DNA of 64,000 nucleotides from Nocardioides euryhalodurans. GTDB taxonomy: Bacteria > Actinomycetota > Actinomycetes > Propionibacteriales > Nocardioidaceae. The position numbers and the translations under genes were made by a program. The notes under the pieces were generated by a model. The model was not told the DNA's origin and did not search any database. It saw only the letters and a list, made by a program, of their open reading frames with translations. Where the stretch lies: the NCBI RefSeq assembly GCF_004564375.1, contig NZ_CP038267.1:1304501-1368500 (forward strand). The letters run 5' to 3'. This document shows, in pieces, positions 5,622 to 36,184 of the stretch (position 1 is its first letter; each line of letters begins with the position of its first letter).

Positions 5622-6725
5622 TCAGCCGAGGTCGACGATGGCGGCCACCGGCCCGCCGCCCTCCGGCCCCTGGTGGGCTGCCGACACGGACACGAAGACG
5701 GCCGGGTCACCGGTGACGGCCGCCGTGACGCCGCCGACGGCAGCCTTGATCTGGCGGTGCCAGTGGACGTCGGAGTCGTCGAGCATGGCGTTGCGCCGGC
5801 CGCGCACCTCGCCGTCCTGGGACGCCTCGCACTTGAGGAACAGGTTGACTAGCCGGCCGTCGAGGTCGGTGTGGTGCGGCCGCTCCGGCAGGTCGAGGCC
5901 GGCGTCGCGGATCGCCTCCCAGAGGCCGTCCTGGTCGAGGGCGTCCTTCATCACCGAGTGCCCGATCCGGTAGCGACCGCCGACGCCGGGTGCGTTGCCG
6001 ACGACGACCACCTGGGCCCGGTCGAGCTCGACGCCGCTCGAGCACGACGCGACGGACGAGAACAGCGTGCGGTCCTTGAGCACCTGCTCGTCGGTCGGCA
6101 TGTCGATCTCGCCGAGCGCGACCGCGATCCCGAGGGCGGTGCCGCCGTTGGAGACGTCCATCGAGTACAGCGTGTCCTCCGTGAAGACCGTCTCCCCCCG
6201 CGACTTGGCGTCCGCGATGGTGCCGAGGGTCAGCAGCGGGGTCTTGGTCTGCACGTAGTGGACGTCGCCGGCGTCCTGGATCCCCGCCCGCTCCATCGCG
6301 ACCTTCACGGCGTCGGCGACCTTGGTGACCATCGCGGTGCGCCCGATGTCCTCGGGCAGCAGCTGCTCGCTCATGGCGAAGCCGACCGTGAGGCGCGGCT
6401 CGTCGCTCGGGACGACGTCCTCGTCGGGCACGGTCGCGAAGATCGTCGCGTGGGGGCTGATCACCCCGTCGGTGCCGCCGGACCACACGATCGGCACCTG
6501 CTGCACGGCCTCGGGGTCGGCGCCCTTCTCGACCAGCGCCTCGCGGAAGGCGCGGTCCGCGATGATCCGGGTGTAGTCGTTGACCCCGCCGTTGCCCTCG
6601 GTCTTGCCGATGATGGCGATCACCCGGTCGGCCGCGAGCACCCCCTCGTCGATGAGCTTCGTCAGCTCCGAGGCGTCCGCCACGGAGTGGATCGGCACCT
6701 TGCGGACCTCGATGGCACTGGGCAT
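5622..6725 (-). CDS. Ring-opening amidohydrolase (barbiturase / cyanuric acid hydrolase family)
   Basis: 367-residue member of the AtzD/TrzD/barbiturase family, which hydrolyses a cyclic amide bond with Ser-Lys dyads. Known substrates are cyanuric acid (to carboxybiuret) and barbituric acid (to ureidomalonate). Three pseudo-repeat signatures are visible: GKTEGNGGVNDYTR at 40-53, VWSGGTDGVISPH at 80-92 with Ser82, and CSSGVELDRA near 227-236. It follows carbamate kinase by 25 nt with a good AGAGGAAC ribosome site, so the two form one operon. The uracil-type permease and Mo-hydroxylase elsewhere in the window favour barbiturate; no local biuret hydrolase/allophanate hydrolase pair argues for cyanurate. 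Substrate is inferred, family is clear. Confidence 0.9.
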   Translation of the reverse strand: MPSAIEVRKVPIHSVADASELTKLIDEGVLAADRVIAIIGKTEGNGGVNDYTRIIADRAFREALVEKGADPEAVQQVPIVWSGGTDGVISPHATIFATVPDEDVVPSDEPRLTVGFAMSEQLLPEDIGRTAMVTKVADAVKVAMERAGIQDAGDVHYVQTKTPLLTLGTIADAKSRGETVFTEDTLYSMDVSNGGTALGIAVALGEIDMPTDEQVLKDRTLFSSVASCSSGVELDRAQVVVVGNAPGVGGRYRIGHSVMKDALDQDGLWEAIRDAGLDLPERPHHTDLDGRLVNLFLKCEASQDGEVRGRRNAMLDDSDVHWHRQIKAAVGGVTAAVTGDPAVFVSVSAAHQGPEGGGPVAAIVDLG

Positions 6726-6750
6726 CAGCTGGTTCCTCTCGGGTTGGGGG

Positions 6751-33384: not shown

Positions 33385-34778
33385 GCGACCCCACCGACCA
33401 CGTCGAGCTCCGCAGCGCGTACGCCGACTCGGTCGCCCTGCTCCAGGTCAGCCGAGACGTCCAGGCGGTGCCCGGTGTGGCGACCGCCCAGGTGGCGATG
33501 GCGACGCCCCTCAACCTCGAGGTGCTGGCCTCGATGGGGTTCGACGTGCCCAGCGCGGCCACCCCCAACGACATGGTGGTCGCGGTCAGGACCGCACCCG
33601 ACGGTGACCTGTCGGCCGCCCTCGCGGCGGTCGACGCGGCTCTGGCTCCCCGCCGACCCGCTGCGGGCGGTGGCGCCGTCGAGTCGCACCGCACCACTGC
33701 CTCGGCGCTGGCCGAGGCCCCCGGCCTCGCCCTCGTGTCCGTCCCCGGTGCCAGCGCGTTCGTCGAGGCGATGGACGCCCTCGACGCGGGCTGCGACGTG
33801 ATGGTCTTCAGCGACAACGTCCCCGTCGAGCAGGAGGTCACCCTCAAGCGGACCGCCGCCGAGCGGGGGCGCCTCGTGATGGGTCCCGACTGCGGTACTG
33901 CCGTCGTCGGAGGGCTCGGCCTGGGCTTCGCCAACGCCACCCGCCCGGGACCGGTCGGCATCGTCGCGGCCTCCGGGACCGGTTGCCAGCAGCTGCTGGC
34001 CCTGCTCGACCACGCCGGTGTCGGGGTCGGCACCGCTCTCGGGGTCGGCGGCCGCGACCTGTCGGCCGAGGTCGGTGGTCTCTCCACCACCGAGGCGCTG
34101 CGGCGGCTCGACGAGGACGACGCCGTCGAGCTCGTCGTGCTGGTATCGAAGCCACCCGCCGACGAGGTCGCCACCCGGATCGAGGAGTACGCCGCCGGGC
34201 TGGGCACCCCGGTCCAGCTCGCCCTGCTGGGGCCCGGCCGCCCCGACCTGACGGTCGCCGCCGAGGCCGTGCTCGACCGACTCGGGACCACTCCCCCCGC
34301 CTGGCCCGTCGACGGTGCGGCCGCCGCCGGGCGCGGTGGTCGGCTGCACGGCCTCTTCGCCGGCGGCACCCTCTGCGAGGAGTCACGGCTGATCGCCGCG
34401 GAGGCCGGGGTCCCCTCCGCAGGGAGCAGCTTCACCGACTTCGGGGCCGACGACTACACCTCGGGCCGCGCACACCCCATGATCGACCCCACGCTGCGCC
34501 TGGAGCACCTGCGCCAGGTCGCGGCCGACCCGGGCACCGGTGTCGTGCTGCTCGACGTGGTGCTGGGCCACGGCGCCGACCCCGACCCCGCGGCGACGCT
34601 CGCGCCCGCGATCACGGGCCTCGACGTCCCCGTCGTCGTCACCGTCGTCGGCACCGGTCTCGACCCCCAGGACCGCGACCGCCAGGTCGGGGCCCTGGTC
34701 GCAGCCGGGGCCGAGGTCCACCTGTCCAACGCCACGGCCACCCGCCGTGCCGTCGAGCTCGCCGGAGGCGCCCGATGA
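33381..34778 (+). CDS. FdrA-like acyl-CoA synthetase-fold protein (AllF-like)
   Basis: 465 residues of the FdrA family, related to succinyl-CoA synthetase. Seen: start VELRSAYADSVALLQVSR, MGPDCGTAVVGGLGLGFAN near 167-185, and DVVLGHGADPDPAATL near 391-406, both typical FdrA blocks. In E. coli FdrA (AllF) is a subunit of oxamate carbamoyltransferase. A phosphohistidine-type mechanism is not evident. It overlaps the genes on both sides by 4 nt, so the three subunits should be made together. Substrate inferred to be a ureido acid such as ureidomalonate. Confidence 0.85.
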   Translation: MSDPTDHVELRSAYADSVALLQVSRDVQAVPGVATAQVAMATPLNLEVLASMGFDVPSAATPNDMVVAVRTAPDGDLSAALAAVDAALAPRRPAAGGGAVESHRTTASALAEAPGLALVSVPGASAFVEAMDALDAGCDVMVFSDNVPVEQEVTLKRTAAERGRLVMGPDCGTAVVGGLGLGFANATRPGPVGIVAASGTGCQQLLALLDHAGVGVGTALGVGGRDLSAEVGGLSTTEALRRLDEDDAVELVVLVSKPPADEVATRIEEYAAGLGTPVQLALLGPGRPDLTVAAEAVLDRLGTTPPAWPVDGAAAAGRGGRLHGLFAGGTLCEESRLIAAEAGVPSAGSSFTDFGADDYTSGRAHPMIDPTLRLEHLRQVAADPGTGVVLLDVVLGHGADPDPAATLAPAITGLDVPVVVTVVGTGLDPQDRDRQVGALVAAGAEVHLSNATATRRAVELAGGAR

Positions 34779-36184
34779 CTGCCGTGCCCGACCGCGTCGT
34801 GACCACCGGGGCCGACCTGCTCGCCGATGCCGTGGCGGCCCAGGCAGTTCCCGTCGAGCGGGTCGACTGGCGGCCGCCGATGGCCGGCACCGAGGCGGAC
34901 CTGGCCACCGTGGCGGGCGACCCGCGCCGGCGTACGGCCAACGAGGCGGCGCTGGCCGCCGTCCTGGGGGTCACCGCCCACCTCGTCGACGTCGCTCCCG
35001 CCTCCGAGCTGCTCGGCCTCGAGCCCGGCCAGTTCCTCCACGCAGGCCCACCGATCACGTGGGACCGGGCAGCCGGGCCGCTGCGGGGGGCGCTGATGGG
35101 TGGCGCCGCCCTCGAGGGCCTGGTCGAGGACCCCGAGGACGCCGTCCGACTCTTCGAGTCCGGTGGCTCGGTCTCCCTGGACCCGTGCCACCACCACGGC
35201 GCGGTCGGACCGATGGCCGGCGTGGTCACGCCGTCGATGTGGATGTTCGTCCTCGAGGACCTCGCCACCGGGCGACGGACGCACTGCACCCTCAACGAGG
35301 GACTCGGCAAGGTGCTGCGCTACGGCGCGTACGGCCCGGAGGTGCTGACCCGACTGCGCTGGATGGGCGACGTGCTCGGCCCGTTGCTGCAGGGCGCGGT
35401 CCGGGCGGTGCGTGACAGCCACGGCCCGGTCGACGTGACCGGGATCCTGACCCAGATGCTGCAGATGGGCGACGAGGCCCACAACCGCAACCGCGCAGGC
35501 ACCCTGATGCTGCTGCGCGACCTCTCCCCCTCGATGGTGACCGGCGGCGGCGACAGCGTCGACGTCGCCGAGGCGCTCGCCTTCGTCGGCGGCAACGACC
35601 ACTTCTTCCTCAACCTCGCGATGCCGGCGTGCAAGCTCGCGCTGGACGCGGCGCGCGGGACCGAGGGCTCCACGATGGTGGTCGCGATGGCCCGCAACGG
35701 GACCGACTTCGGGATCCAGACCGCCGGCACCGGCGACGAGTGGTTCACCGGCCCCGCCCAGGTCGCCGACGGGCTCTTCCTCGGTGACTACGGTCCCGAC
35801 GACGCCAATCCCGACATCGGGGACTCCGCGATCACGGAGACCGCCGGGATCGGTGGCTTCGCGATGGCCACCGCCCCCGCGATCGTGCGGTTGGTGGGCG
35901 GGACCGTCCCCGACGCGCTGGCCACGACCCGACGGATGCACGAGATCACGCTGGGCGAGAACCCGCGCTGGTCGGTGCCGGTGCTCGACTTCCGCGGCGT
36001 CCCGACCGGGATCGACGTCACTCGCGTGTGCCGGACCGGGATCCTCCCCCAGATCAACACCGGCATGGCCGGCCGGCGGGCCGGCGTGGGACAGGTCGGC
36101 GCCGGTCTGGTCACACCTCCGGCCGAGATCTTCCCCCGGGCCCTGGCGCGGCTGGCGGAGCTGGCCGGAAGAACGCCCGCCTGA
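34775..36184 (+). CDS. DUF1116 protein, AllG/YlbE-like carbamoyltransferase component
   Basis: 469 residues of the DUF1116 family. Seen: LDPCHHHGAVGPMAGVVTPS near 134-153, QMGDEAHNRNRAGT near 231-244 and GGNDHFFLNLAMPACKLA near 273-290, all strongly conserved blocks. The E. coli homologue YlbE (AllG) forms oxamate carbamoyltransferase with FdrA and YlbF. Third gene of the operon. Its last 74 nt overlap the convergent alkyltransferase-like gene, so the two mRNAs are antisense there. It completes the carbamoyl-phosphate-forming module that carbamate kinase needs. Confidence 0.86.
   Translation: MTAVPDRVVTTGADLLADAVAAQAVPVERVDWRPPMAGTEADLATVAGDPRRRTANEAALAAVLGVTAHLVDVAPASELLGLEPGQFLHAGPPITWDRAAGPLRGALMGGAALEGLVEDPEDAVRLFESGGSVSLDPCHHHGAVGPMAGVVTPSMWMFVLEDLATGRRTHCTLNEGLGKVLRYGAYGPEVLTRLRWMGDVLGPLLQGAVRAVRDSHGPVDVTGILTQMLQMGDEAHNRNRAGTLMLLRDLSPSMVTGGGDSVDVAEALAFVGGNDHFFLNLAMPACKLALDAARGTEGSTMVVAMARNGTDFGIQTAGTGDEWFTGPAQVADGLFLGDYGPDDANPDIGDSAITETAGIGGFAMATAPAIVRLVGGTVPDALATTRRMHEITLGENPRWSVPVLDFRGVPTGIDVTRVCRTGILPQINTGMAGRRAGVGQVGAGLVTPPAEIFPRALARLAELAGRTPA

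What the first reader, a model, noticed from the sequence alone, without database searches (positions are those of the whole stretch)
5622..36184. Dispersed gene set consistent with an ATP-yielding oxidative pyrimidine pathway through ureidomalonate phosphorolysis
Seen: uracil-type permease, three-subunit Mo-hydroxylase, CoxG and amidase in one operon; barbiturase-family amidohydrolase with carbamate kinase in another; DUF2877-FdrA-DUF1116 next to a PucR regulator in a third. Known: barbiturase opens barbiturate to ureidomalonate, AllFGH splits oxalurate with phosphate into oxamate and carbamoyl phosphate, and carbamate kinase makes ATP from that product. Inferred: ureidomalonate is the one-carbon-longer homologue of oxalurate, so the same chemistry would give malonamate plus carbamoyl phosphate, and the amidase would finish to malonate. 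The classical oxidative route hydrolyses ureidomalonate to urea and malonate instead, without energy gain. I know of no described version with the FdrA complex.
Basis: partly seen in the sequence, partly recalled or inferred. Interest (0 to 1): 0.92.

Follow-up and report, generated by a model that had tools for sequence, protein, structure and literature searches.

The report
ATP-yielding barbiturate branch of uracil breakdown
A Nocardioides-like actinobacterium and many of its relatives carry one conserved gene set that likely breaks down uracil through barbiturate and is predicted to split the opened ring with phosphate rather than water, so that the cell would gain ATP and would avoid making urea, for which no urease was found in this genome.

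Summary
The ring opener carries the Bar signature residues, its best sequence match among solved structures is 'Barbiturase' 5hwe, and it is 84% identical to the Rhodococcus erythropolis protein. In 149 same-family genomes, AllG (the AllFGH marker) occurs in 64 of 66 barbiturase genomes and 6 of 83 others. Of 47 named barbiturase genomes searched (11 or more shared with that sample), 43 have AllG. The four without it are the Rhodococcus-type genomes, which carry an amidase beside barbiturase instead of carbamate kinase and all have urease. No urease was found in the window genome or in 37 of the 43. AllD exceeds its cut-off in 0 of 48, so allantoin-derived oxalurate is an unlikely substrate. 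The AllG copies placed in a tree form their own clade. Nothing has been assayed. New variant of a known pathway.

The parts
5622..6725 (-). Barbiturase (AtzD/TrzD-family ring-opening amidohydrolase, 367 aa)
   Evidence: PF09663 481 bits; best PDB sequence hit 5hwe 'Barbiturase' 663.8 bits versus 333.3 for TrzD 5t13; Bar signature N193, H323, K327, V347, S348
6751..7689 (-). Carbamate kinase, 25 bp upstream of barbiturase on the same strand
   Evidence: PF00696; NF009007 305.8 bits, cut-off 266; arcC 329.1 bits, below its 358.25 cut-off; found within 10 kb of barbiturase in 74 of 80 named loci
7756..7772 (+). Candidate operator upstream of the carbamate kinase-barbiturase operon (TTGGCA-N5-TGCCAA, 1 mismatch)
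   Evidence: same motif upstream of carbamate kinase in 34 of 59 relatives' regions
14480..15226 (-). Short-chain dehydrogenase, 4 bp overlap with HyuB; role unknown
   Evidence: PF13561/PF00106; match in 13 of 80 named loci
15223..17142 (-). HyuB, subunit of an ATP-dependent hydantoinase/oxoprolinase-type enzyme
   Evidence: PF02538 456.9 bits; orthologue at 78% identity or more in 48 of 48 barbiturase genomes searched
17139..19220 (-). HyuA, partner of HyuB; nearest NCBIfam model is caprolactamase alpha, below its cut-off
   Evidence: PF01968, PF05378; NF050156 501.8 bits, cut-off 1000
19256..19272 (+). Candidate operator upstream of HyuA (2 mismatches)
19288..19304 (+). Candidate operator upstream of HyuA (1 mismatch)
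   Evidence: motif upstream of HyuA in 15 of 34 relatives' regions
20963..22357 (-). Amidase-signature amidase; predicted malonamate amidase (inference)
   Evidence: PF01425 349 bits; amidase match in 25 of 80 named loci; a nitrilase-type amidase follows CoxG instead in L097
22365..22973 (-). CoxG-like protein of the Mo-hydroxylase operon
   Evidence: PF06240
22970..25360 (-). Mo-hydroxylase large subunit, candidate uracil (thymine) dehydrogenase
   Evidence: PF20256, PF02738; motif YRGAGR at 363, not the CO-dehydrogenase AYxCSFR type (motif names recalled); GIKGAGEAG at 745; orthologue in 46 of 48 barbiturase genomes searched
25357..25857 (-). Mo-hydroxylase [2Fe-2S] subunit
   Evidence: PF01799, PF00111
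25854..26708 (-). Mo-hydroxylase FAD subunit
   Evidence: PF00941, PF03450
26715..28157 (-). NCS2 nucleobase permease, RutG-like
   Evidence: PF00860 225 bits; RutG TIGR03616 327.5 bits, below its cut-off
28260..28276 (+). Weak candidate operator upstream of the permease-Mo-hydroxylase operon (3 mismatches, no significance shown)
31303..32550 (-). PucR-type regulator, divergent from AllHFG
   Evidence: PF13556, PF17853
32576..32592 (+). Weak candidate operator between PucR and AllH (3 mismatches, no significance shown)
32629..33384 (+). AllH (DUF2877) subunit
   Evidence: PF11392 66.7 bits
33381..34778 (+). AllF (FdrA) subunit
   Evidence: 3dmy FdrA 210.5 bits; 38.9% identity to E. coli AllF; FdrA model 351 bits, cut-off 433
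34775..36184 (+). AllG (DUF1116) subunit of the barbiturase-linked clade
   Evidence: PF06545 308 bits; 45.9% identity to E. coli AllG; tree

Best explanation
This conserved gene set most likely encodes an oxidative pyrimidine pathway in which a molybdenum hydroxylase would oxidise imported uracil to barbiturate, the barbiturase-type enzyme would open that to ureidomalonate, and an AllFGH-type complex would split ureidomalonate with phosphate into malonamate and carbamoyl phosphate, from which carbamate kinase would make ATP, ammonia and CO2. Shown by sequence and comparison: barbiturase signature, complete AllFGH, carbamate kinase, their shared presence and absence across genomes, an upstream palindrome shared by operons of the set, and no urease match in this genome. 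Inferred: the substrate of AllFGH, the identity of the Mo-hydroxylase as uracil dehydrogenase, and the amidase step malonamate to malonate plus ammonia. In relatives, dicarboxylate-type CoA-transferase genes near barbiturase would carry malonate into central metabolism. HyuAB is a constant partner whose task is open; the guess made here is ATP-dependent opening of 5-methylbarbiturate from thymine.
For: Barbiturase identity. Same-family profile: AllG in 64 of 66 barbiturase genomes, 6 of 83 others, p = 2e-32; 54 of 54 same-contig pairs on opposite strands, median 23 kb. Phylum sample: 14 of 18 against 22 of 278, p = 3e-11. Named genomes: carbamate kinase within 10 kb of barbiturase in 74 of 80 loci; AllG in 43 of 47 genomes searched, the 4 misses being the 4 Rhodococcus-type genomes that have an amidase and no kinase in the fetched flanks. 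Urease alpha in 4 of 4 of those, in 6 of 43 AllG genomes, and not in the window genome; urea carboxylase over cut-off in 1 of 48, not the window genome. AllD over cut-off in 0 of 48. Single clusters of at most 20 kb in other families. AllG clade, SH-aLRT 97, with His to Gly at 433 in 44 of 44 rows. Shared palindrome upstream in 65 of 179 pathway-gene regions against 16 of 548 others. Precedents: OXTCase (PMC11326118: outline and Discussion read) and allantoate phosphorolysis in Rubrobacter (PMC4016543: passages read).
Against: No activity has been measured. 6 of 149 same-family genomes have AllG without barbiturase, and 2 of 66 have barbiturase without AllG (both assemblies 81-85% complete). 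At least 11 genomes are in both the family sample and the named sample, and genomes are related, so the tests are not independent and p-values overstate. 6 of 43 AllG genomes do have a urease alpha match (one partial). Four of the 43 have further AllG copies that were not put in the tree. L055 has AllFG and barbiturase but no carbamate kinase hit in its 20 kb, and L164 none within 10 kb; kinase absence was not searched genome-wide. HyuB is in every genome searched and HyuAB is unexplained, and L071-L073 combine HyuAB with AllFG in genomes without a PF09663 match. The amidase is only a generic amidase-signature protein (malonamidase E2 is a distant hit, about 88 bits). The window has no match to the CoA-transferase or carboxyltransferase families found near barbiturase in relatives.
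Confidence: 0.76

Rival explanations
1. AllFGH is an ordinary oxalurate phosphorolase that happens to share a nitrogen-salvage regulon; oxalurate would come from allantoin or from a hydantoin-type ring opened by HyuAB.
For: Homology to E. coli AllFGH (AllG 45.9%, AllF 38.9%); PucR-type regulator beside it; HyuB in 48 of 48 and HyuAB found with AllFG without barbiturase in L071-L073.
Against: AllD over cut-off in 0 of 48 genomes; presence follows barbiturase; HyuB is also in the Rhodococcus-type genomes that lack AllG; own AllG clade.
Confidence: 0.12
2. The classical hydrolytic route operates: the amidase is the ureidomalonase (urea plus malonate), and AllFGH with carbamate kinase serve another ureide.
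For: An amidase is in the Mo-hydroxylase operon; in Rhodococcus, where the hydrolytic route was described (Soong 2001, recalled, and as cited in PMC3758960), an amidase directly follows barbiturase.
Against: The window amidase is in a different place and only a distant relative of the Rhodococcus one (39%); the window genome has no urease match and no urea carboxylase over cut-off; carbamate kinase lies 25 bp from barbiturase and AllG follows barbiturase across genomes.
Confidence: 0.07
3. The ring opener is a cyanuric acid hydrolase and the set degrades cyanurate via biuret.
For: NCBIfam CyanAcHdlAtzD model scores above its cut-off (473 bits).
Against: Barbiturase 5hwe scores about twice as high as the best cyanuric acid hydrolase; both CAH-defining arginines are Asn and Lys and the CAH SGGxE motif is absent.
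Confidence: 0.02

Closest known systems
Oxidative pyrimidine pathway of Rhodococcus (uracil dehydrogenase, barbiturase, ureidomalonase)
   Same: Barbiturase at 82-84% identity; CoxL orthologue in 3 of 4 and HyuB in 4 of 4 Rhodococcus-type genomes; NCS2 permease and CoA-transferase homologue near barbiturase.
   Different: The Rhodococcus-type genomes have an amidase beside barbiturase, urease, no AllG, and no carbamate kinase in the fetched flanks; the window and relatives have AllFGH plus carbamate kinase.
Oxamic transcarbamylase AllFGH with carbamate kinase AllK of E. coli allantoin breakdown (PMC11326118)
   Same: Three homologous subunits and a carbamate kinase; would do the same chemistry on an N-acylurea; in enterics too it goes mostly with lack of urease.
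   Different: No AllD over cut-off; barbiturase would supply the ureide; separate AllG clade with an H-to-G signature; gene order H-F-G here versus F-G-H in E. coli.
Ureidoglycine carbamoyltransferase route of Rubrobacter xylanophilus (PMC4016543, passages read)
   Same: Phosphorolysis of a nucleobase-derived ureide with a carbamate kinase gene beside it.
   Different: Uses an ATCase-like enzyme on allantoate in purine, not pyrimidine, catabolism.
AOA/comammox biuH-allFGHK clusters (PMC12625717, passages read)
   Same: AllFGH and carbamate kinase next to an amidohydrolase gene for another ureide.
   Different: Biuret hydrolase instead of barbiturase; the authors found no atzD in their nitrifier genomes and assign oxalurate as substrate.

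Membership tests
Barbiturase (Bar group VI of the AtzD/TrzD family) | AtzD/TrzD (Toblerone) family membership | tested here: met
   PF09663 481 bits, 1-358/358
Barbiturase (Bar group VI of the AtzD/TrzD family) | Bar signature Asn, His, Lys, Val, Ser/Ala at the five specificity positions | tested here: met
   N193, H323, K327, V347, S348 (signature from PMC3758960)
Barbiturase (Bar group VI of the AtzD/TrzD family) | Hydrolysis of barbiturate | not testable with these tools
   needs an assay
Oxamic transcarbamylase (AllFGH) | AllF, AllG and AllH encoded together | tested here: met
   PF11392, Ligase_CoA/FdrA, PF06545 in overlapping genes
Oxamic transcarbamylase (AllFGH) | Allantoin pathway context with AllD making oxalurate | tested here: not met
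   AllD: 0 of 48 over cut-off, no match in the window genome; other allantoin genes were not searched
Oxamic transcarbamylase (AllFGH) | Groups with E. coli AllG | tested here: not met
   44 barbiturase-genome rows on one side of a branch, E. coli AllG on the other (quick tree; E. coli rows have long branches)
Oxamic transcarbamylase (AllFGH) | Oxalurate/oxamate activity | not testable with these tools
   needs an assay
Classical oxidative pyrimidine pathway | Uracil/thymine dehydrogenase | tested here: inconclusive
   Mo-hydroxylase orthologue in 46 of 48 barbiturase genomes, substrate unknown
Classical oxidative pyrimidine pathway | Ureidomalonate hydrolysed to urea and malonate | tested here: inconclusive
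   No amidase next to barbiturase here; no urease match; the activity itself was not tested

The most novel reading that the evidence does not exclude
The barbiturase-linked AllFGH clade is a distinct enzyme, ureidomalonate transcarbamylase (ureidomalonate + phosphate to malonamate + carbamoyl phosphate), and AllFGH is a general family of ureide phosphorolases with substrate-specific clades. Through it many actinobacteria turn pyrimidine breakdown into substrate-level phosphorylation and bypass urea, and the urea-forming Rhodococcus route is the exception among the named barbiturase genomes sampled here (4 of 47).
Probability: 0.6. Interest if true: 0.86.

Novelty: new variant of a known kind. 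Interest (0 to 1): 0.8.

Why it matters
The described oxidative pyrimidine route ends in urea and yields no ATP at that step. If the phosphorolytic version is right, it would be the form carried by 43 of the 47 named barbiturase genomes searched here, would explain why carbamate kinase sits beside barbiturase, and would give a second substrate class to the only recently identified AllFGH transcarbamylase. It also offers candidate genes for uracil/thymine dehydrogenase and for malonamate handling. The key step can be tested with one coupled assay.

Tried and rejected
Considered and rejected: cyanurate/biuret degradation by this ring opener; allantoin-derived oxalurate as the source (only AllD was searched, not the other allantoin genes); CO oxidation by the CoxL-like subunit (YRGAGR motif instead of AYxCSFR, a recalled motif; the CO-dehydrogenase label of model NF040766, 1512 bits, is noted). 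Malonamidase E2 similarity of the amidase was too weak to use. No Rfam match at gathering threshold in the window. A CAACGTAGYGAC repeat in two intergenic regions is not convincing (6 of 100 shuffles reach it). The CoA-transferase homologue has a match in 47 of 48 genomes, but this includes likely paralogues, and in the window genome the best one lies elsewhere (66%, C1:3440494), so it proves nothing for this window. Literature: in searches no listed title or shown abstract joins barbiturase with FdrA/AllFGH (the lists of 17, 38 and 90 show 20 of 1,131, 32 and 119 papers), and no paper holding both barbiturase and fdrA came up; most subscription papers are not in that library. The original Soong 2002 and Seffernick 2012 papers and one review were not held; Soong is cited from recall and through PMC3758960.

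Rows dropped before counts: for the AllG tree, 93 hits over 150 bits and 75% coverage gave 62 distinct rows after identical ones were merged, plus the window and two E. coli references, 65 in all; of the 43 named AllG genomes 30 gave a row each, best copy only, and 9 further AllG copies in G300, G314, G319 and G336 were not included. For the named-genome test, 50 of 80 loci were sent and 3 were not held. CoxL has no hit at the strict limit in two genomes, G299 and G312.

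
Full report
What is there. The window lies in a 4.02-Mb single-contig genome; the window is about 74% GC. Transcription units, as judged from spacing: carbamate kinase-barbiturase; HyuA-HyuB-SDR; permease-CoxM-CoxS-CoxL-CoxG-amidase; PucR divergent from AllH-AllF-AllG.

The ring opener. Its best sequence match among solved structures is 5hwe 'Barbiturase' at 663.8 bits; the best cyanuric acid hydrolase scores 333.3 bits. 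It is 84% identical to the R. erythropolis NBRC 15567 protein. The five Bar specificity residues given in PMC3758960 (passages) are all present, and the two arginines and SGGxE motif that define cyanuric acid hydrolases (PMC9118981, passages) are not.

Does AllFGH belong with it? Four comparisons say yes; they overlap in part. (1) Phylum sample of 296 genomes: 36 have AllG, 18 have a PF09663 protein, and 14 of the 18 have AllG against 22 of the other 278. Three of the four exceptions carry distant PF09663 proteins (38-43% identical); the fourth was not measured. (2) Same-family sample of 149: 64 of 66 barbiturase genomes have AllG against 6 of 83; the two misses are 81-85% complete assemblies, and a few of the 64 have only a fragmentary match; 54 pairs share a contig, all on opposite strands, median distance 23 kb, with one apparent 4.1-Mb distance in a genome of about that size, probably across the origin. 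The four without AllG are Rhodococcus and Rhodococcoides genomes, which show no kinase in the fetched flanks and have an amidase directly downstream of barbiturase. At least 11 of these genomes are also in sample (2). (4) In other families of the phylum the genes can be packed together: L049, L051 and L056 hold CoxG-L-S-M, AllG-AllF-AllH, carbamate kinase, NCS2 and barbiturase with a divergent PucR, and L064 holds NCS2-kinase-AllH-AllF-AllG-CoxM-S-L-G-amidase-HyuA-HyuB in one row.

Why phosphorolysis. Urease alpha matches are found in all four Rhodococcus-type genomes, in 6 of 43 AllG genomes (one match partial), and not in the window genome. A urea carboxylase over its cut-off is in 1 of 48 (G306); the four Rhodococcus-type genomes have a long partial match (964-972 bits), and the window genome's best match is 508 bits over model positions 3-445 only. 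Urea would therefore likely be a dead end for the window organism. Kim and Kim make a similar point for urease-negative enterics, with E. coli O157:H7 as an exception that has both (PMC11326118, Discussion). AllD is over its cut-off in 0 of 48 genomes (five with weak hits, none in the window genome), so the allantoin route to oxalurate looks absent. AllG from barbiturase genomes is one side of one branch (44 rows, SH-aLRT 97, quick tree), apart from E. coli AllG and YahG and 19 rows from other genomes; extra AllG copies in four genomes were not placed. It has Gly instead of His at 433 in 44 of 44 rows (His in 17 of 21 others) and Pro instead of Ala at 284 in 43 of 44. Whether these line the active site is unknown.

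Shared regulation. The palindrome TTGGCA-N5-TGCCAA occurs three times in the window with two mismatches or fewer: upstream of carbamate kinase and twice upstream of HyuA (expected 0.43; 0 of 100 shuffles reach three). In the 80 named loci it lies upstream of carbamate kinase in 34 of 59 regions, HyuA 15 of 34 and a CoA-transferase 13 of 31; over all labelled pathway genes 65 of 179 against 16 of 548 others, and 10 of the 16 are families that lie divergent to the kinase or HyuA. In 1.4 Mb of coding sequence it occurs 9 times, all with two mismatches. Sites before NCS2 and between PucR and AllH have three mismatches and prove nothing alone. That PucR binds it is a guess.

The rest of the pathway. 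CoxL orthologues are in 46 of 48 barbiturase genomes including three of four Rhodococcus-type ones, which fits uracil/thymine dehydrogenase; no title or abstract listed names a gene for that enzyme. Amide hydrolases recur in the clusters but from different families: the amidase-signature protein here and in L053 and L064, a nitrilase-type one after CoxG in L097 with relatives in five other loci, an asparaginase in L055, a carbon-nitrogen hydrolase in L049. A common task such as malonamate hydrolysis would explain that; this is inference. Within 10 kb of barbiturase, 45 of 80 loci have a protein family whose three tested members resemble dicarboxylate CoA-transferases and 15 have one whose two tested members resemble AccAD-type carboxyltransferases, all below curated cut-offs; L055 has a malonyl-CoA-synthase-like ligase (446.5 bits, cut-off 558). 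The window has no match to the first two families.

What does not fit. HyuB orthologues are in 48 of 48 genomes, also those without AllG, so HyuAB seems to serve the part of the pathway common to both types. Opening of 5-methylbarbiturate from thymine is my guess. L072 has Cox, HyuAB, AllFGH, amidase and an acyl-CoA ligase, and L071 and L073 parts of the same row, in genomes with no PF09663 match; their AllG has the His, so another ureide may be made there. L055 has no carbamate kinase hit in its stretch, nor have the partial contigs L062 and L063.

Verdict. Observation confirmed; interpretation supported by comparison but untested at the bench.

Noticed in passing
L069 7023-11595; L070 5164-10940: AllF, AllG and carbamate kinase beside a hydrolase of one family, an isochorismatase by Pfam in L070, that also has a member near a distant AtzD-like protein in L067. 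PMC12625717 reports biuH-allFGHK in nitrifiers. Allophanate, the biuret hydrolase product, could be another phosphorolysis substrate (carbamate plus carbamoyl phosphate).
   Followed up: partly
L071, L072, L073: Clusters with CoxM-S-L, HyuA-HyuB and AllF-AllG (in L072 also amidase, AllH and an acyl-CoA ligase) in genomes without a PF09663 match: perhaps a sister pathway with HyuAB as the only visible ring opener.
   Followed up: partly
L068 5677-13574: CoxM-S-L, a distant AtzD-like protein (39%), an amidase and a PRK07787-type acyl-CoA synthetase, and no AllG match in that genome: looks like an AllFGH-free version.
   Followed up: partly
window 11236-11724: Cytidine-deaminase-family protein (PF00383), 66-72% identical matches in four named loci; might feed cytosine-type bases into the pathway.
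   Followed up: no
window 47798-60704: Four genes (starting at 47798, 51003, 52218, 59580) whose products begin with a similar FLHVGTPKSGTT-like stretch, resembling sulfotransferases by eye (output).
   Followed up: no
L123 4340-7017 and 9154-9777: In R. erythropolis, barbiturase is divergent from a uracil phosphoribosyltransferase and near a CoA-transferase and an AccAD-like carboxyltransferase, candidate genes for malonate handling in the classical pathway.
   Followed up: partly
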